Source: Pyrinomonadaceae bacterium
GTDB lineage: Bacteria; Acidobacteriota; Blastocatellia; Pyrinomonadales; Pyrinomonadaceae
NCBI GenBank assembly: GCA_023717605.1
Contig: JAMQPH010000445.1
Span: forward strand, 1-43,908
Direction: 5' to 3'
Length of the DNA: 43,908 nt
A program made the translations under genes and the position numbers. The notes below the pieces were generated by a model. It was not told the origin of the DNA, did not search any database, and saw only the letters and a list, made by a program, of their open reading frames with translations. Below, piece by piece: positions 26,927 to 43,726 of the stretch (positions are counted from its first letter, which is position 1; each line of letters begins with the position of its first letter).

Positions 26927-26950
26927 CCGAGCCGGGGAGGCTCGGTTGTG
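26927..26950 (+). terminator. Hairpin terminator candidate after the GT2 gene
   Basis: CCGAGCC (26927-26933) pairs with GGCTCGG (26939-26945) over GGGGA and is followed by TTGTGT. The stem is strong but the T-run is weak. Confidence 0.5.
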
Positions 26951-27091
26951 TACGCTAACGAACATACGTGTTATAGTGGCGCGTCGATCATCTGTGTGAC
27001 ATCTGGACTAGTTTTTCAAATCCCGTCCTCTTGCCATTCTGTTGCTCGTTCCACTCCTCTAAACAGACAAACAGCAAAGGAACTTGGGATA

Positions 27092-28648
27092 GTGAAAATC
27101 TTACTGTATAACCCTGATAACGGCGTGACGCGTAATTTCATGCCGCATCTCTGGATGTTTTTGCTCCAATCGCTCACTCCTCCCGAACACCAGGTCCTGC
27201 TAATTGATGGTAACGCCAAGCCTCTGACTGAAGAGGAATTGGTGCAGTTTGTCCGGGACGAAGAGATTGGATTGGTGGGAATTGGCGCGATGACCCGGAT
27301 GGTGGCCAGGGCCTACCGGATGGCCGATGCCATTCGAGCCGTGGGAGTGCCGGTCGTTATGGGTGGTCCCCATGTTACAGAAGCAGCAGATGAAGCGCTC
27401 GGCCGAGACGGAGGTCCGCGACATGCGGACGCGGTGGCATTGGGTGAGGCTGATGAAACGTGGCCGAAAATTGTAGCTGATGCCGCGCGAGGCCAGCTAA
27501 AGGAAGTCTACGAGCCCGTCGATGAAACCGGCAAAGAACGCAAGCCAAGTATGACTCCTTATCCGTCCATCCCCTGGGAGACACTCGACCTCGATCAATT
27601 CAACCTGGTGCCGAAAATAGCGCGTTCGCTTCTCGAGCGACACGGCGCCGGTTGGGGAACGTTCCATATGGTTCCCATCGAATCGGGTCGCGGTTGTCCC
27701 TACGGCTGTGAGTTTTGCACGGTCACAGGGTTCTTTGGCGACTCGATTCGCTTTCGCACAAATGAAAGCGTAGTTGACGAACTTCTGCGGCTAAAGATGC
27801 GCGCGCGCAAGAACCTTGGTCAGATAGCCGTCTTTTTCATAGACGATAACTTTGCCATCAATATCAAGCGCACGAAGTCGCTTCTTAGAGACATTATTGC
27901 CGCTGGTGCCCAGCTTCCCTGGACCGCGCAGATTAGTGCCAACCTCTTGCGTGACGAAGAGCTGGTGGATCTGATCTCTGCTTCGGGTGGAAGGTGGATA
28001 TTCATTGGAATGGAATCAATCGATCCCGCCAATCTTGCGGATGTGAATAAGAACTTCAACAAGCCCGGCGAATATGCCGCGGTGCTCGAGCGACTCGCAA
28101 AACGGAATATCTACGCGATCACGTCCTTCATCTTTGGCATGGATAACGATACGCCCGGTGTGGCGGATCGAACGTTAGAGCAGATCGCGACTTGGCCTCC
28201 CGTGCTGCCCGTCTTCGGACAACTTACAGCCTTTCCCGGTACGCCGTTGTACGCCAGGTTGGGAGCTGCGGGCCGAATGACTCGGCCCCGTCACTGGATG
28301 GATTTTGCACCCTTTAAGATGGCCCACACTCCCCTGAAGATGACCATCGAAGATGCCCAGATGGAAGTGGACAAGGCATGGAGAACGTCTTATAGCGCTG
28401 AGAGCAACCAGAAGGCGCTACAGTCAATCGCTGACCGGCGTATTGATGACAGACTAATGCACCTGATTGCGCGCTTGTTCTTCCGAGGCATTTATTTCCC
28501 CCAGTTGACCAGGCGCGACTGGACCAAACTGGTGGCTCAAAATCGGCGGCCGGTTTGGAAGCTCGCCAAAGAAGCCTTCGGTCTCTATCGGGCCGCGCGC
28601 AAGAATAGTCCACGAGCCGAAGCACTCACGAGACCCCTGCAGTCGTAA
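27092..28648 (+). CDS. B12-binding-domain radical SAM protein
   Basis: This 518-aa protein has an N-terminal cobalamin-binding-like Rossmann domain (ILLYNPDNGVTRNFMPHLWM; VVMGGPHVTEAADEAL) and a radical SAM barrel with the 4Fe-4S motif CxxxCxxC at 202-209 (GCPYGCEFC). Motifs FIDDNFAIN and FIGMESIDP follow, then a C-terminal helical domain. Family members methylate or rearrange unreactive carbons in lipids, cofactors and natural products. The substrate is unknown here; a lipid or hopanoid role is one possibility. I chose GTG at 27092 because the conserved domain starts at once and AAAGGAA lies 9 nt before it; the frame is open from 26948 but that part has no domain. It follows the GT2 gene in the same direction. 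Confidence 0.88.
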   Translation: MKILLYNPDNGVTRNFMPHLWMFLLQSLTPPEHQVLLIDGNAKPLTEEELVQFVRDEEIGLVGIGAMTRMVARAYRMADAIRAVGVPVVMGGPHVTEAADEALGRDGGPRHADAVALGEADETWPKIVADAARGQLKEVYEPVDETGKERKPSMTPYPSIPWETLDLDQFNLVPKIARSLLERHGAGWGTFHMVPIESGRGCPYGCEFCTVTGFFGDSIRFRTNESVVDELLRLKMRARKNLGQIAVFFIDDNFAINIKRTKSLLRDIIAAGAQLPWTAQISANLLRDEELVDLISASGGRWIFIGMESIDPANLADVNKNFNKPGEYAAVLERLAKRNIYAITSFIFGMDNDTPGVADRTLEQIATWPPVLPVFGQLTAFPGTPLYARLGAAGRMTRPRHWMDFAPFKMAHTPLKMTIEDAQMEVDKAWRTSYSAESNQKALQSIADRRIDDRLMHLIARLFFRGIYFPQLTRRDWTKLVAQNRRPVWKLAKEAFGLYRAARKNSPRAEALTRPLQS

Positions 28649-34105: not shown

Positions 34106-34284
34106 ATGCCTGGACTCCCAAAAGTCAGGTTGAACAGCAATCAGATCTTTGCAATCACGGTGCCGTCCCCGGGCTAGACCAGTGGGAATCTGAGCCCAGC
34201 TCCGCTATCGCTATCCAATCATGATTGGGGTTGAAGAATACTGACGCTTGTTACTCTTTAATTAGTGTCACAGGAATCCCTCTA

Positions 34285-34330
34285 TGGAGTGCGCCGGCAG
34301 AGCGCAGCGGCGACGGCGCTTTGGATTGGA
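34285..34330 (+). repeat. REP element, type A
   Basis: It begins TGGAGTGCGCCGGCAGAGCG and continues through GACGGCGC to CTTTGGATTGG. The GGAG head is followed by a hairpin with GCGCCG pairing to CGGCGC. It lies about 195 bp beyond the 3' end of the RAYT gene. The region 34106-34523 otherwise holds no gene. Confidence 0.85.
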
Positions 34331-34376
34331 CGCAACTCAACCTGATCCTCGTAGGGAGGGTACCCGAGTGAGAAGA

Positions 34377-34417
34377 AATCCAAAGCGGTGTCCCGCTGCG
34401 CTTGCCACCGCACTCCA
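34377..34417 (-). repeat. REP element, type B
   Basis: On the minus strand it begins TGGAGTGCGGTGGCAAGCGC and ends ACACCGCTTTGGATT. The stem is GCGGTG/CACCGC in place of GCGCCG/CGGCGC, so both arms changed together. It lies in inverted orientation between the two type A copies. Confidence 0.85.
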
Positions 34418-34466
34418 AAAAGTTGGGAGCTTGGAGAGTTAGATGCTTCGTGGTTGGCCGGCTTTA

Positions 34467-34511
34467 TGGAGTGCGCCGGCAGAGCGCAGCGGCGACGGCG
34501 CTTTGGATTGG
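34467..34511 (+). repeat. REP element, type A
   Basis: It is nearly identical to the copy at 34285-34330 and ends 13 bp before the RAYT stop codon. With the inverted type B copy it makes a BIME-like pair. Confidence 0.85.
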
Positions 34512-34523
34512 ACGTGCAGAAGG

Positions 34524-35117
34524 CTACCACTCATCCGCGGCCTCGTAATCGTCATAAACTCTCAGGCGATCAATCTTTAGTGAGTAGATTGTCTTAATTT
34601 GTGCCGGCCGCGCGGTTCGTTCGAACCATCGCGCGGAGCACCAAGGATTCTGGTTAGCTACCATCACGAGACCGTGCTTCACAGGGTTCTGGTGGACGTA
34701 ATTGAGTCTGGCAAGATAGGACTTTTGATAAGTGAGTTTCGTTTCCCAGAAATTGTGCCATACCTGGCGTCCGCGACTGTCGTCTAAACGATTGATCCAC
34801 TTCGCGGTTTTCTCGTGGAGCAATCCGAGCATCGCCGAAAGACTTTCGGCGCTGTCGTCGTGCTCGGGCGAGTGAGCTACGAAATGATAGTGATTTGAGA
34901 AAACGGCCCAAGCCTCGAGGTTCCATCCATAATCGCGGGCGACGGTAAGTAAACCGCGATGGAGAACCTGAAGACGGTCGGCGGTGCGGAAGAAATGCTC
35001 TTTTAGGTAAGTGCCGGCTGTAACAAAGTAAGTGCCGCGACCAGAAAGTTCATGAACAGGTGCGTGAGGCCAAGGGACTTTTTTCTGGCCTTGTGAGGTA
35101 GAGGCCTTGAGGATCAT
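34524..35117 (-). CDS. REP-associated tyrosine transposase (RAYT)
   Basis: This 197-aa protein is a TnpA-REP/IS200-IS605-like Y1 HUH nuclease. The HUH-type metal motif is H76-Y-H78 (FSNHYHFVAHS) and the C-terminal signature is LNYVHQNPVKHGLV, with candidate catalytic tyrosines at 134 and 140. Length and order fit a complete enzyme. Such proteins bind and cut single-stranded REP sequences and are thought to spread them while being fixed as single-copy genes. Type A and type B REP elements lie on both sides (34285-34511 and 35129-35169). The N-terminus LSGRGTYFVTAGTY also fits the family. Confidence 0.9.
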   Translation of the reverse strand: MILKASTSQGQKKVPWPHAPVHELSGRGTYFVTAGTYLKEHFFRTADRLQVLHRGLLTVARDYGWNLEAWAVFSNHYHFVAHSPEHDDSAESLSAMLGLLHEKTAKWINRLDDSRGRQVWHNFWETKLTYQKSYLARLNYVHQNPVKHGLVMVANQNPWCSARWFERTARPAQIKTIYSLKIDRLRVYDDYEAADEW

Positions 35118-35128
35118 TTTGTTGCCTT

Positions 35129-35169
35129 AATCCAAAGCGGTGTCGCGCTCCGCTTGCCACCGCACTCCA
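35129..35169 (-). repeat. REP element, type B
   Basis: On the minus strand it begins TGGAGTGCGGTGGCAAGCGG and ends with ACACCGCTTTGGATT. It sits 11 bp upstream of the RAYT start codon and 14 bp from the stop of the radical SAM gene. Confidence 0.85.
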
Positions 35170-35183
35170 AAAGGGGCCGACGA

Positions 35184-37163
35184 TCAAACTCGAACTGTAT
35201 CTTCCTCGTGTTCTTCTACCAGGTACGGAGACACGACCTGAGGCTTGACGTCGGCGTCTTCGGCTAAGACGGCCTGGATAATCGGTAGACTGAGTGAATG
35301 CTTTCTGGAAATCCCAGGAACGTCGTGGCCCGCGGCATAGACAGCATGACGTCCGTGTTCTTCGTACCACTCGGCGAGGTCAGCGGTCTTGTGCATGTTT
35401 TCGATAATCTGCCGCCAACCCACGCCCGTGTTGTAAGCACAGAATGAGATCTCGCCTTCCTGGGTGCCGTAAGGGATCACGCACATTTCGGTGCGGCGAA
35501 AATCGTAGTTGAAGAGATCCTGGAACCACATGCCTTCGACGCAGAGCACGCGCCAGATGTCGTTGGGATCATCCTGGATTCCGGTCGTCTTCATCCGATC
35601 GTTGCGGTCTGAACTGGAGTTGGTCGACGAAGGTTTGAAGAGATTCAGAATCTGCGAAATCGGGAACCCTTCGGGCGCACGTTCAGCGTTGAAGTTTCGC
35701 AGGATCGCCATGCCGAGTTGCGCATAGGAAAGCTTCTTGCTGCGCGCCGTGTCCGTGATCGTGCCGACGTCTTTCATGAATTGCTCGTAATCGAAAAACT
35801 CAAACAGCGAAGTAAACTCACCGGTCTTTCGATTGACCACCATCAAAGTGAAGATGCCGCAATTCGGGTGGCAATTGCAGGAAGACCAACCCCAGGGCGC
35901 GTCTGCGCCTTGCAACATGTCCATCACGCTGGTGAATGCCGAGTAAGAGGAAAGTGGATACCAGTCACGCAGCGGTTGCAGTTGTCCGCGAAGTTGGTCC
36001 TTCAGATCATGAGTCATGCCGGCGAGGGTGTAACGCTGCTTGATTCGCAGTGCGTCGGAAATGTCTTCGTCGCGGCCGGTGAATGAGACGGGTTGAAACG
36101 CTATGGTCTGCACCTTGTCGATATTCTTCGCCGCGAACTCAGCAATCTGGCCTATGCCGTCATTGTTGATGGTGTTTACGATGGTCGTAACCAGCGTGAC
36201 CTTAATCCCGACGCTGGCGAGATTCTCAATCGCCTGCTGTTTCACATCAAACAAGTTGCCGACGCCGCGATGTTTGTTCTTTTCTTCACTCACGCCATCA
36301 AACTGAAGGTACACACCATGTTGGCCCGCAGCCTTCGCGGCTTTGCAGAACTCAATGTCTTCGGCGAAGCGTATGCCGTTTGTGGCGGCGAGGATTCGGT
36401 AGAAGCCAACTTTCTTCGCGTAAGCGACGGCCTCGAGGTAGTAAGGCGAAAGTGTGGGCTCACCACCGGAGAAGAGGATAATGATCTGCCGTTTTGGTTT
36501 AAACGAAACTGCGCGATCGAGAATCGCCTTCGTATCTTCATACGTGGGCTCGTGAACATACCCAACCTGGTTTGCATCCATGAAGCACGGATTGCACATC
36601 ATGTTGCAGCGGTTGGTTAGGTCAACGGTCAAAACGGCGCCACGACCAAACTTGATGTTTGATGTTCCATGGTGATGCACGTGCGAATCTTCAGCCGCGC
36701 GAAAGTCGCGTCCAAAGAACAGCGATTCGATCCGCTCGAGAAATGCCGGATCAGTTGCCATCACGTCAACAAACTCGCCGTGCTTCGGACAGGTCTTGCG
36801 CATGACCACCTGTCCGTTCTCTTCGACTATCTGAGCTTTGATTTCGCCTGGATGCTCGTTCATCAACGACTCGAGAGTCGTCTCGCCGCTGATGACGGCG
36901 TCGCGGACTTCCTTGACGCAACGCGGACAAAGGCTGTCAGTCTCACGTGGGAAGCCGAGCGGTGGAGAAGTTCGTTCATAGGATTTCAGCAGTGGTCCGG
37001 GGGCCCAGTTGGGCCGGATGGCTTCGCCTTCCGGTAGTCGACGGTTGACTGACTGAAAGGCGTTCCAGGCTACGTCTGAAAGGTTTGAGAGCAGCTTGGA
37101 GCTCTTCACGCCTGATAGCTTGCCCTTCTCGGACTCACCTCTGCGAAACTGGTCACTAAACAA
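35184..37163 (-). CDS. Tes-like radical SAM enzyme (candidate membrane-spanning lipid synthase)
   Basis: This 659-aa protein has the layout of the tetraether synthase (Tes, MJ0619-type) family: an N-terminal rubredoxin-like cysteine region (C79xxC82 and C125 in RKTCPKHGEF), the radical SAM motif C186xxxC190xxC193 (CNMMCNPC), GGEP at 233-236, and a later cysteine cluster (C429, C431, C435) that may bind an auxiliary Fe-S cluster. A C-terminal segment has LCVEGMWFQDLFNYDFRR. Archaeal Tes joins two lipid tails by C-C coupling; bacterial homologues are proposed to make membrane-spanning fatty acids such as iso-diabolic acid, abundant in Acidobacteria. The start is TTG with GGAG 8 nt upstream. The assignment rests on remembered motifs. 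Another lipid- or cofactor-modifying radical SAM role is possible. Confidence 0.8.
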   Translation of the reverse strand: MFSDQFRRGESEKGKLSGVKSSKLLSNLSDVAWNAFQSVNRRLPEGEAIRPNWAPGPLLKSYERTSPPLGFPRETDSLCPRCVKEVRDAVISGETTLESLMNEHPGEIKAQIVEENGQVVMRKTCPKHGEFVDVMATDPAFLERIESLFFGRDFRAAEDSHVHHHGTSNIKFGRGAVLTVDLTNRCNMMCNPCFMDANQVGYVHEPTYEDTKAILDRAVSFKPKRQIIILFSGGEPTLSPYYLEAVAYAKKVGFYRILAATNGIRFAEDIEFCKAAKAAGQHGVYLQFDGVSEEKNKHRGVGNLFDVKQQAIENLASVGIKVTLVTTIVNTINNDGIGQIAEFAAKNIDKVQTIAFQPVSFTGRDEDISDALRIKQRYTLAGMTHDLKDQLRGQLQPLRDWYPLSSYSAFTSVMDMLQGADAPWGWSSCNCHPNCGIFTLMVVNRKTGEFTSLFEFFDYEQFMKDVGTITDTARSKKLSYAQLGMAILRNFNAERAPEGFPISQILNLFKPSSTNSSSDRNDRMKTTGIQDDPNDIWRVLCVEGMWFQDLFNYDFRRTEMCVIPYGTQEGEISFCAYNTGVGWRQIIENMHKTADLAEWYEEHGRHAVYAAGHDVPGISRKHSLSLPIIQAVLAEDADVKPQVVSPYLVEEHEEDTVRV

Positions 37164-37755: not shown

Positions 37756-38322
37756 TCAACGGCCGGCCCGACGCAGCATCGGCCCTTCGGGCATCTGTCG
37801 CCTGCGTCGACGAACAATCCCGGCCAGGCCAGCCAGCCCGGTCCCTAATAACAACATCGTCATCGGCTCAGGCACAGGTGCATTTGATGGCTGCACCCTG
37901 ACCGAGAAACTGAAAGGGTTTGTTTCCAGGACATTCGTGCCGTTGTTGGACAGAACTGAGAGCACTCCCGCGTACGTGCCGGCAGTAGCGCCTGCGAGCA
38001 TCTCAACCGTAAACATGTCAAGAGGCCCGAGAGTTGTCCCGGGGCCGACGGTTTGAAACAGGAAGTTAGTAACAAACGGACTATCGTCGAGAAAAAGCGT
38101 GCCGGCTCCATCATTGAAGGTGATTTGACTGGAAACAATCTGCACGGATGGCGCGGTGACGTTCAGCACGCTTCCGCCAAACGTCAGGATGCTCCCAACT
38201 GTGCCACTCTGATTTGGGTTAGTTAGCGTTAAGGTTAGTGGATCGGCCTTGGCGCTTGTTGACAGCAGTGCCAGCAGGGAGACCGCTAAGGTCGTGATTA
38301 TTAATCGTTGCGTGGTTTTCAT
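37756..38322 (-). CDS. PEP-CTERM sorted surface protein
   Basis: This 188-aa protein has a signal peptide (IITTLAVSLLALLSTSAKA) and a C-terminal PEP-CTERM signal: VPEPMTMLLLGTGLAGLAGI followed by VRRRRR. The middle is a beta-rich domain with Thr/Asn/Gly (LTLTNPNQSGTVGSILTFGG) and a SFSVRVQPS ending, like the one-domain PEP-CTERM proteins common in Acidobacteria and Nitrosomonas relatives. Like the protein at 7490 it has extra residues after the Arg cluster. I use the ATG at 38322; the frame is open from 38373, but the signal peptide begins MKTTQRL. Role unknown, probably matrix or surface. Confidence 0.8.
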   Translation of the reverse strand: MKTTQRLIITTLAVSLLALLSTSAKADPLTLTLTNPNQSGTVGSILTFGGSVLNVTAPSVQIVSSQITFNDGAGTLFLDDSPFVTNFLFQTVGPGTTLGPLDMFTVEMLAGATAGTYAGVLSVLSNNGTNVLETNPFSFSVRVQPSNAPVPEPMTMLLLGTGLAGLAGIVRRRRRQMPEGPMLRRAGR

Positions 38323-38400
38323 TTTGTCCGTCCCTTTTCCAAAGTGATTAAGACTTGACCCGATGCTTCTCATGCTTGATCACGCTTGCTCCACTACTGA

Positions 38401-42457: not shown

Positions 42458-42628
42458 AAGATTCAAAGTGGGAACGAGGAACTACCAGATTAACGCATAG
42501 GAACCTAACGCAAAGAGTGAGCCCGGCCTTTGAAGTATGCCATTGTCTTCTGCAGATTTCACTATTTCGTTGCGGTGCAGCTGGAGTGTCATTGCCGAAA
42601 ACGCCGCAAATCGGATAAGGTGCGACAA

Positions 42629-43726
42629 ATGACTGATCCCATGAGCGACACAGTTAGAGCGAAGAGCGTTGAGGAGTTGGCTGCCTTAATCGGCGCCCGC
42701 GCCTTAGGCGACACTCAGATTGGTATTGAAAGTGTCGCAAGCGTCGGGTCCGCAACGCTCGGGACGGTGGCGTTCGTTGAAGATCTCAAAGCCTTGGAAA
42801 ATGCGCAAGATTGTGGTGCTTCCGCTCTGATAGTGCCTGATGGCGCCGGCGAACGCGCTCGTAAGATTGCTCAGAAAGTACCTGCCATAATTGAAGTGGC
42901 GATACCTAAACTTGCCTTTGCTCTATTCGCTAAAATCCTACATCCTCAGAAGCAGCGCGAGCCTTCGATTCACTCGACTGCCGCCATTGCCGAAAGTGCC
43001 GACATCGCATTAACGGCTTACATTGGTCCACACGTCTCCATCGGCGAGAACTCAACCATCGGAACGGGGACCAGAATCGAAGCGGGAGTTGTCGTTGGTG
43101 ACGACGTAACGATCGGAATCGACTGCGTGTTGCATCCCAACGTCACGCTCTACGATGGAGTCACAATTGGCGATCGCGTCGTTCTTCATGCGGCCGTTTG
43201 CATAGGAGCTGACGGCTTTGGTTACGTGCGCGACGACGTGGCCTATCACAAGTTTCCGCAAGTCGGCACAGTAATAATTGAAGACGATGTAGAGATTGGC
43301 GCGCACACGTGTGTAGATCGCGGATCACTTGGGCGTACGCGCATCGGTCGTGGGACGAAGCTGGACAATCAGATCCACGTGGGCCACAACTGCGACATCG
43401 GAGAACGGGTTGTGATCGCCGCGCAAACCGGTATCAGTGGCAGCGTTACGATTGAAGACGACTGCGTGATCGGTGGCCAGGTTGGCTTTGGCGATCATAT
43501 CCGTGTGCAGAGCGGAGCGGTAATCGGATCAAAGGCGGGCGTGCTGCCTGGTAAGATCGTGCGGCCGGGTGTCTGGTGGGGCATTCCCATCCAGCCGCGG
43601 GATGAATACAAACGACTCAATGCCCACGTTGGGCGACTACCTCAGATGAGAGAAGAGCTTAAGGAACTACGCACGCGCGTGAAAGAATTGGAAGAAAAGC
43701 TTCTTCCAAACTCAGCGGATGATTAG
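42629..43726 (+). CDS. lpxD: UDP-3-O-acylglucosamine N-acyltransferase
   Basis: This 365-aa enzyme transfers the amide-linked acyl chain in lipid A synthesis. It has an N-terminal uridine-binding domain (SVEELAALIGARALGD; VASVGSATLGTVAFVED) and a left-handed parallel beta-helix of hexapeptide repeats (IGPHVSIGENSTIGTGTRIEAG and following). The catalytic His is in QIHVGHNCDIG. A C-terminal coiled helix (REELKELRTRVKELEEKL) ends it. The ATG at 42629 has AAGG 8 nt upstream; the frame is open from 42530 but the family starts here. Its presence shows a Gram-negative outer membrane. No other lipid A genes are in the window. Confidence 0.94.
   Translation: MTDPMSDTVRAKSVEELAALIGARALGDTQIGIESVASVGSATLGTVAFVEDLKALENAQDCGASALIVPDGAGERARKIAQKVPAIIEVAIPKLAFALFAKILHPQKQREPSIHSTAAIAESADIALTAYIGPHVSIGENSTIGTGTRIEAGVVVGDDVTIGIDCVLHPNVTLYDGVTIGDRVVLHAAVCIGADGFGYVRDDVAYHKFPQVGTVIIEDDVEIGAHTCVDRGSLGRTRIGRGTKLDNQIHVGHNCDIGERVVIAAQTGISGSVTIEDDCVIGGQVGFGDHIRVQSGAVIGSKAGVLPGKIVRPGVWWGIPIQPRDEYKRLNAHVGRLPQMREELKELRTRVKELEEKLLPNSADD

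What the first reader, a model, noticed from the sequence alone, without database searches (positions are those of the whole stretch)
35184..37163. Tes-like radical SAM enzyme in a probable acidobacterium: candidate for membrane-spanning lipid synthesis
The N-terminal rubredoxin-like cysteines, the CNMMCNPC radical SAM motif, GGEP and the CNCHPNC cluster match the layout of archaeal tetraether synthase (Tes). Acidobacteria make large amounts of iso-diabolic acid and some make branched tetraethers, and radical SAM homologues of Tes have been proposed for this. A complete 659-aa copy with an intact cysteine set, a strong ribosome site on a TTG start and a REP next to its stop codon makes it a good test case. 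It is not beside the other lipid gene (lpxD).
Basis: partly seen in the sequence, partly recalled or inferred. Interest (0 to 1): 0.7.

Follow-up and report, generated by a model that had tools for sequence, protein, structure and literature searches.

The report
Second Tes-like lipid-coupling enzyme, Acidobacteria
The gene encodes a bacterial cousin of the archaeal enzyme that joins lipid tails end to end, but it belongs to a separate bacterial branch that seems to lack one of the archaeal enzyme's iron-sulfur clusters, and it is the second, more divergent copy in its genome.

Summary
In detail: window 35184-37163 (-) encodes a complete 659-aa radical SAM protein whose closest solved structure, by sequence and by fold, is archaeal tetraether synthase (Tes). 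The claim that its cysteine set matches Tes is only partly right. The rubredoxin site, radical SAM cluster and catalytic C-terminal cluster with its labile Met are conserved. The ligands of the N-terminal [Fe4S4]N cluster are missing, as in all 107 sequences (106 genes) of this acidobacterial branch in hand; 33 of 34 compared acidobacterial Tes-group proteins keep them. It scores 311 bits against a Tes cut-off of 450, so it is not Tes. The branch has two paralogues. Type A is the copy in five named SD1 genomes and the better iso-diabolic acid synthase candidate. Type B, this gene, is in at least 64 of 104 sampled genomes of the host's family, lies divergent from lpxD in 10 of 21 B loci, and has lost a Gln pair conserved in A and Tes. 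The host also carries type A. The membrane-spanning lipid idea is plausible and already in print for Acidobacteria, but this copy is probably a specialised second enzyme. I found no lipid or enzyme assay for it.

The parts
35184..37163 (-). Type-B Tes-like radical SAM protein, 659 aa, TTG start
36780..36929 (-). Rubredoxin-type Fe site: C79, C82, C125, H128
   Evidence: His at 128 in 97 of 98 aligned rows; Cys at 79, 82, 125 in every row that has those columns; ligand pattern from PMC9433317
36651..36683 (-). Place of the lost [Fe4S4]N site: residues 161-171, HVHHHGTSNIK instead of CxxxCxxCxxH
   Evidence: motif in 0 of 107 A+B sequences and 33 of 34 Tes-group proteins
36585..36608 (-). Radical SAM cluster motif C186-x3-C190-x2-C193
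36390..36476 (-). Stretch from L230 to L258, the two Leu that replace a Gln pair conserved in type A and Tes
   Evidence: Leu/Leu in 38 of 38 type B
35859..35879 (-). CNCHPNC: C429, C431, C435 (C435 aligns with an invariant Tes cysteine)
35439..35531 (-). C-terminal cluster region: M545 (= labile Met439), C561, Y565 (= Tyr459), C575
   Evidence: M545 in 98 of 98 rows, Y565 in 97 of 98
42530..43726 (+). lpxD, divergent neighbour in 10 of 21 type-B loci
34524..35117 (-). Frame with weak Y1/IS200-like (RAYT-like) transposase match, between REP copies, downstream of the gene
   Evidence: not part of the enzyme's function

Best explanation
The gene encodes type B of an acidobacterial family homologous to Tes that most likely joins two lipid tails by a radical C-C coupling. 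By analogy with Tes: two phospholipids put one tail each into two hydrophobic pockets; the 5'-deoxyadenosyl radical takes H from a tail end; the carbon radical is held on a sulfur of the C-terminal cluster; a second SAM makes the second radical and the bond forms. For iso-C15 tails this would give iso-diabolic acid. Shown here by computation: fold, radical SAM site, conserved C-terminal cysteines with the labile Met, rubredoxin site, absence of the [Fe4S4]N motif, two paralogues. Inferred: all chemistry and the substrate. I take type A (G000:C603) to be the general iso-diabolic acid synthase and type B (this gene) to be a specialised coupling enzyme for a different chain, headgroup or linkage, because it alone lost the Gln pair in neighbouring barrel strands.
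For: Tes fold (7tom E 2e-38, target TM 0.84; the next match, MoaA, E 1e-7; model pLDDT 83.8). Conserved: C435, C561, C575, M545 and SAM-site G234, D289, Q357, R364 in 98 of 98 rows, Y565 in 97 of 98 (the 98 rows hold the window and one A gene twice). Distribution (NF045702 E <= 1e-40): 78 of 78 genomes of three groups (f14, Acidobacteriaceae/SD1, 33; f27, SD3-like, 10; own class, SD4, 35) against 2 of 53 in three other large families (f26 1 of 29, f49 0 of 13, f44 1 of 11); f14, f27 and f1 named by 16S and contig length, subdivision labels recalled. Named genomes of Edaphobacter lichenicola, Occallatibacter savannae, Granulicella mallensis, Terriglobus albidus and Acidobacteriaceae KBS 83 have one type A and no type B. 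Type strains of the first two species, with other strain names, contain 11.8% and 33.2% iso-diabolic acid (PMC11354219, PMC12935467; passages). Specialisation of B: Leu/Leu in 38 of 38 B; Gln/Gln in 63 of 69 A and 30 of 34 Tes-group proteins, the others being unread at one place (8), Gln/Glu (1), or unread/His (1).
Against: No activity, lipid or expression data. The [Fe4S4]N motif is missing, so a Tes-like cycle is not guaranteed. A 2026 paper says a survey also found iso-diabolic acid in SD6 (PMC13274423, passage), yet two genomes titled Vicinamibacteria/Vicinamibacterales had no match at E <= 1e-20. A genome titled Acidobacterium sp. and one titled Terriglobales also had none (L084, L151), and 8 of 147 own-class genomes had none at E <= 1e-30 (2 of 99 among the more complete); incomplete assemblies may explain these. 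Solibacter makes brGDGTs without detectable iso-diabolic acid (PMC10087280, passage). The gene follows large clades, so the lipid correlation may be shared descent, and the families compared were chosen after seeing the table. Mixed families exist (f19 3 of 5, f48 4 of 6, f28 2 of 5). That the Gln pair faces the pocket is inferred; no coordinates were seen.
Confidence: 0.5

Rival explanations
1. Type B does the same reaction as type A; the two copies differ only in regulation or dose.
For: Same catalytic residues; both copies in the same genomes.
Against: A and B share about 50% identity and separate deeply; 21 positions set B apart, including the Gln pair; two MAGs have B and a Tes-type protein but no A match (G440, whose B match holds one TGA, and G476).
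Confidence: 0.2
2. The family acts on lipid tails but does not couple them: another radical change such as methylation, desaturation or cyclisation of iso-diabolic lipids.
For: [Fe4S4]N motif absent from all 107 A+B sequences; extra invariant C429 and C431 could saturate the C-terminal cluster and change its use; type A sits beside a second, unnamed radical SAM gene in 11 of 55 A loci (gaps -49 to 369 bp).
Against: Labile-Met and Tyr positions are kept. In the T. albidus genome type A was the only match to this protein at E <= 1e-3, so no other Tes-family coupling enzyme was seen there; Mss was not searched for.
Confidence: 0.2
3. Not a lipid enzyme: a pterin methylase or a cofactor or peptide maturase, as older names (HMPTM) suggest.
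For: The Pfam zinc-ribbon name recalls the old pterin assignment; weak similarity to NirJ, AhbC and MoaA models.
Against: The NirJ, AhbC and MoaA matches cover about residues 146-378 only. The whole fold matches Tes. Lloyd 2022 could not corroborate the pterin assignment (passage).
Confidence: 0.07

Closest known systems
Tetraether synthase Tes / GDGT-MAS (MJ0619; PDB 7TOL, 7TOM; NCBIfam NF045702)
   Same: Fold over most of the solved chain; rubredoxin C-C-C-H; radical SAM cluster; conserved C-terminal cysteines, labile Met, Tyr459; SAM-site residues.
   Different: 28-29% identity in the fold alignment; 311 against a 450-bit cut-off; no [Fe4S4]N motif; extra C429 and C431; Leu pair for Gln141/Gln169; about 70 more residues before the rubredoxin site.
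Acidobacterial type A Tes-like proteins (probably the one Tes homologue reported for Edaphobacter aggregans in Zeng 2022; an E. aggregans-titled MAG here has a single match, type A)
   Same: Same branch, about 50% identity, same absence of the [Fe4S4]N motif, same HxHG and C-x-CHPNC-type motifs.
   Different: Type A keeps the Gln pair, is found in SD1 and SD4 genomes alike, and in 11 of 55 loci sits beside another radical SAM gene.
Bacterial membrane-spanning lipid synthase Mss (seen only as described in PMC13274423 and PMC11868695)
   Same: Couples fatty acid tails to membrane-spanning lipids; modelled as sharing the Tes catalytic architecture (PMC13274423, passage).
   Different: Not compared: no Mss sequence was available here.
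Radical SAM (seleno)protein TrsS (NF045646)
   Same: Second-best NCBIfam model, 203.6 bits.
   Different: Cut-off 490; the best stretch covers residues 107-396 only.

Membership tests
Tes (tetraether synthase) | NCBIfam equivalog cut-off of 450 bits | tested here: not met
   311.5 bits
Tes (tetraether synthase) | Falls in the clade with MJ0619 | tested here: not met
   A+B separated from 19 Tes rows by a branch with SH-aLRT 100 (101-row quick tree, long branches present)
Tes (tetraether synthase) | [Fe4S4]N ligated by C73, C77, C80 and His | tested here: not met
   H161, H165, S168, K171; motif in 0 of 107 A+B sequences and 33 of 34 Tes-group proteins
Tes (tetraether synthase) | Rubredoxin-type CX2C...CX2H iron site | tested here: met
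   C79, C82, C125, H128
Tes (tetraether synthase) | CX3CX2C radical SAM cluster and SAM-binding residues | tested here: met
   C186/190/193, F194, G234, Q357, R364
Tes (tetraether synthase) | [Fe4S4]C with labile Met439, and conserved Tyr459 | tested here: met
   C435, C561, C575, M545, Y565; that these three cysteines are the cluster ligands is inferred from conservation
Tes (tetraether synthase) | Two-pocket fold | tested here: inconclusive
   Foldseek target TM 0.84-0.85; the pockets were not measured
Tes (tetraether synthase) | Makes C-C bonds between lipid tails | not testable with these tools
   needs enzyme or mutant
Mss | Sequence homology to known Mss proteins | not tested
   no Mss sequence in hand
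TrsS | NF045646 cut-off of 490 bits | tested here: not met
   203.6 bits
Pterin methylase (HMPTM) | Methylates a hydroxymethylpterin | not testable with these tools
   only the zinc-ribbon model PF23545 matches; assignment doubted in PMC9433317

The most novel reading that the evidence does not exclude
Soil Acidobacteria carry a streamlined sp3-sp3 coupling enzyme that works without the surface cluster [Fe4S4]N. Its type B, beside lpxD and lpxB, was redirected to outer-membrane lipids, for example joining an iso-branched acyl tail of lipid A to an opposing phospholipid tail and so pinning the two leaflets together.
Probability: 0.08. Interest if true: 0.9.

Novelty: new variant of a known kind. 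Interest (0 to 1): 0.52.

Why it matters
Iso-diabolic acid and brGDGTs underlie temperature and pH proxies for past climates, and in the papers seen here the enzyme that makes them in Acidobacteria was still unproven. Separating the acidobacterial Tes homologues into true Tes, type A and type B tells the bench which gene to delete first (type A in single-copy SD1 strains), predicts that [Fe4S4]N is not needed for lipid-tail coupling, and warns against counting every Tes homologue as a tetraether maker in metagenome surveys.

Tried and rejected
Rejected: membership in Tes (three tested features not met), in TrsS (cut-off not met), and the pterin methylase name. Thought unlikely: a recent duplication inside Pyrinomonadaceae, because type B branches near the base of the A+B clade and relatives at 64-69% identity occur in three genomes whose titles do not say Pyrinomonadaceae (G311, G440, G476). 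Long branches are present in that quick tree, and two long rows that I had labelled A by score (L266, L272) fell beside B, so the exact placement is unsure.

Led nowhere or limited: PlsA/Ger-type ether genes were probed with PF09989 (that this family marks them is recalled): none in the host genome, while 4 of 14 control genomes rang, Thermotoga maritima among them. An Mss comparison was not possible. The neighbourhood ORF caller hid the A gene in 6 of 55 A loci under long antisense frames (49 of 55 called), and several loci are cut by contig ends, so neighbour counts are lower bounds; L229 and L271 are the same stretch of one genome met twice.

Rows used and dropped: the 101-row tree held 12 of 38 B plus the window's own copy again, 69 of 69 A and 18 of 34 Tes-group proteins plus MJ0619. 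The 98-row column counts left out L266, L272 and L276 as long branches and hold the window twice (win_B, L001) and one A gene twice (L216, L261), so 96 are distinct. One search counted all 141 proteins, the three long rows included: L276, a weak homologue, is the one Tes-group protein without the motif, and L266 is the one A without the exact HxHG.S pattern. The 34 Tes-group proteins are 30 over the Tes cut-off and four others grouped by score (L259, L268, L275, L276).

Full report
What is there. The minus-strand frame 35184-37163 encodes 659 aa from a TTG start. Many relatives keep the start position with ATG, GTG or TTG (20 B rows printed). NCBIfam's best model is Tes, NF045702, E 9e-93 and 311.5 bits against a curated cut-off of 450. 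The best PDB sequence match is 7tol, E 2e-65. An AlphaFold2 model from 52 window and locus sequences has mean pLDDT 83.8 and pTM 0.87, and Foldseek returns 7tom and 7tol at E 2e-38 and 3e-37 with target TM 0.84-0.85; the next match is MoaA at 1e-7.

The organism. The window lies in a 7.4-Mb, 909-contig genome. The protein is 92% identical to one in a MAG titled Pyrinomonadaceae bacterium BP_18 (L085, G305), whose match has the same coordinates as same-genus genome G185. A 16S tree puts the host (f1) with a Pyrinomonadaceae-titled locus. It is therefore an SD4 acidobacterium (the link of that family to SD4 is recalled, and Pyrinomonas is called SD4 in PMC4644332).

Two paralogues. The host has a second copy at C603, 52% identical. 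I call the C603 kind type A and the window kind type B. A 101-row quick tree separates A+B from 19 Tes rows, MJ0619 included, by a branch with SH-aLRT 100; B is one group at 97. Mean identity is 50% between A and B and 33-34% between either and Tes. In 147 genomes of the class, type B (75% identity or more) is in at least 64 of 104 genomes of the host's family f1, the host included; no listed match from the 43 genomes of other families reaches that level (counted; the table is cut, so 64 is a lower bound). In the same search 139 of 147 genomes had a match of either type at E <= 1e-30 and 8 had none.

Cofactor sites. Lloyd 2022 (PMC9433317; abstract and passages seen) gives the Tes ligands: rubredoxin C9, C12, C33, H36; [Fe4S4]N C73, C77, C80 and a His; a CX3CX2C radical SAM cluster; and [Fe4S4]C, next to the lipid, with labile Met439; the substrate carbon bonds to a sulfur of [Fe4S4]C. 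The chain as numbered runs 20 ahead of the paper. In P0001 the rubredoxin set is C79, C82, C125, H128. The radical SAM set is C186, C190, C193. The conserved C-terminal cysteines are C435, C561, C575, with M545 (= Met439) and Y565 (= Tyr459). The [Fe4S4]N cysteines, and the His two residues after the last of them, are absent; the stretch reads HVHHHGTSNIK. Over all 141 proteins in hand, CxxxCxxCxxH is in 33 of 34 Tes-group proteins, 0 of 69 A and 0 of 38 B, while an HxHG.S pattern is in 106 of the 107 A+B (two of the A rows are one gene). A and B also have invariant C429 and C431 in the aligned rows. Lloyd states that the roles of the other metallocofactors are not clear, so losing [Fe4S4]N does not by itself exclude coupling.

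What sets type B apart. Twenty-one positions separate B from A. Two of them, L230 and L258, lie at like places of two barrel strands (228-233 and 256-261 in the model) and replace Gln141 and Gln169 of MJ0619. B has Leu/Leu in 38 of 38; A has Gln/Gln in 63 of 69, with 5 unread at the second place and 1 unread/His; the Tes group has Gln/Gln in 30 of 34, with 3 unread at the second place and 1 Gln/Glu. G234, four residues after L230, corresponds to Gly145, which binds the SAM methionine in Tes, so residue 230 probably faces the barrel interior (inference).

Neighbours. In 10 of 21 B loci, the window included, lpxD is divergent from type B, with gaps from 219 bp to 5.4 kb; lpxB-like frames are present in 6 of 21 (names checked on two lpxD and one lpxB). 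No A locus of 55 showed that lpxD cluster. In 11 of 55 A loci, type A sits on the same strand as, and within 370 bp of, a 339-449-aa radical SAM gene; three of these were scanned and reach no NCBIfam cut-off among the matches shown.

Distribution against lipids. In 297 acidobacterial genomes, 167 have a best match to NF045702 at E <= 1e-40 and 130 do not (counted by me from the table). The match is in 78 of 78 genomes of f14, f27 and the own class, and in 2 of 53 of f26, f49 and f44; of these two, G252 holds a true Tes and G248 (E 4e-63) was not looked at. Which type each of the 78 holds was not checked one by one. f14 contains Terriglobus albidus (identical 16S and contig length) and groups with Edaphobacter and Granulicella; f27 is nearest a Sulfopaludibacter-titled locus, so SD3-like. 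The contrast was drawn after seeing the table and the genomes are not independent, so I give no weight to the Fisher value printed. Five named SD1 genomes have one type A and no type B. Iso-diabolic acid is 11.8% in E. lichenicola and 33.2% in O. savannae, under other strain names (PMC11354219, PMC12935467; passages). Pyrinomonas, of SD4, also has iso-diabolic acid (PMC4644332, passage). Against: SD6 is reported to contain iso-diabolic acid (PMC13274423, passage) but two Vicinamibacteria-titled genomes lack any match at E <= 1e-20, as do seven others of 50, among them one titled Acidobacterium sp. and one titled Terriglobales.

What was known. Zeng 2022 found 456 bacterial Tes homologues, named Acidobacteria, and reported one homologue at 32% identity in E. 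aggregans and 40-42% homologues in Koribacter and Solibacter (passages). From the identities I infer that the first is type A and the last two are true Tes. PMC10087280 proposed that one or both Tes homologues make Solibacter brGDGTs (passages). A 2025 paper called the bacterial activity unconfirmed (PMC11868695, passages). Lloyd 2022 also notes bacterial homologues of unknown reaction (passage). My searches listed no paper whose title or abstract start separates types A and B or reports the loss of [Fe4S4]N; the library lacks most subscription papers, and I saw listings, abstracts and passages, not whole papers or supplements.

Verdict. A real Tes homologue of a distinct acidobacterial branch, plausible as a lipid-tail coupling enzyme. 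It is not Tes and not the leading iso-diabolic acid synthase candidate of its own genome. The general idea was in print; what I did not find in print is the missing cluster site, the split into A and B, the Gln-pair loss and the lpxD neighbourhood.

Noticed in passing
L208, L209, L210, L212, L215, L216, L217, L221, L239, L281, L282 (e.g. L209:4732-5826): A 339-449-aa radical SAM gene, of no named NCBIfam family in the three scanned, sits next to type A on the same strand, gaps -49 to 369 bp: a possible partner step in the same pathway.
   Followed up: partly
window 34280-35172: REP copies around a frame with a weak Y1 transposase match; the nearest copy is 11 bp past the stop codon of the gene; 8 places genome-wide at up to 3 mismatches.
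   Followed up: yes
L242 (G253:C7), L243 (G067:C24) and G111:C21: Three Acidobacteriaceae-family (f14) genomes with a true Tes and a Tes-like (A-type) gene within a few kb, a natural test of division of labour.
   Followed up: partly
L266 (G462:C6) and L272 (G461:C210): Long-branch relatives near the base of type B; L266 reads HNHGAN and has His at the second Gln place, perhaps a third type.
   Followed up: no
G058:C174, G223:C57, G009:C5 and G047:C70: TrsS-like proteins (316-327 bits, below the cut-off of 490) form a further Tes-related group in the host's class.
   Followed up: no
window 26948-28648: B12-binding radical SAM protein, weakly like BchE and other B12 radical SAM families, all below cut-off.
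   Followed up: no
window 37756-38373: Protein with a PEP-CTERM sorting motif, about 0.6 kb upstream of the gene.
   Followed up: no
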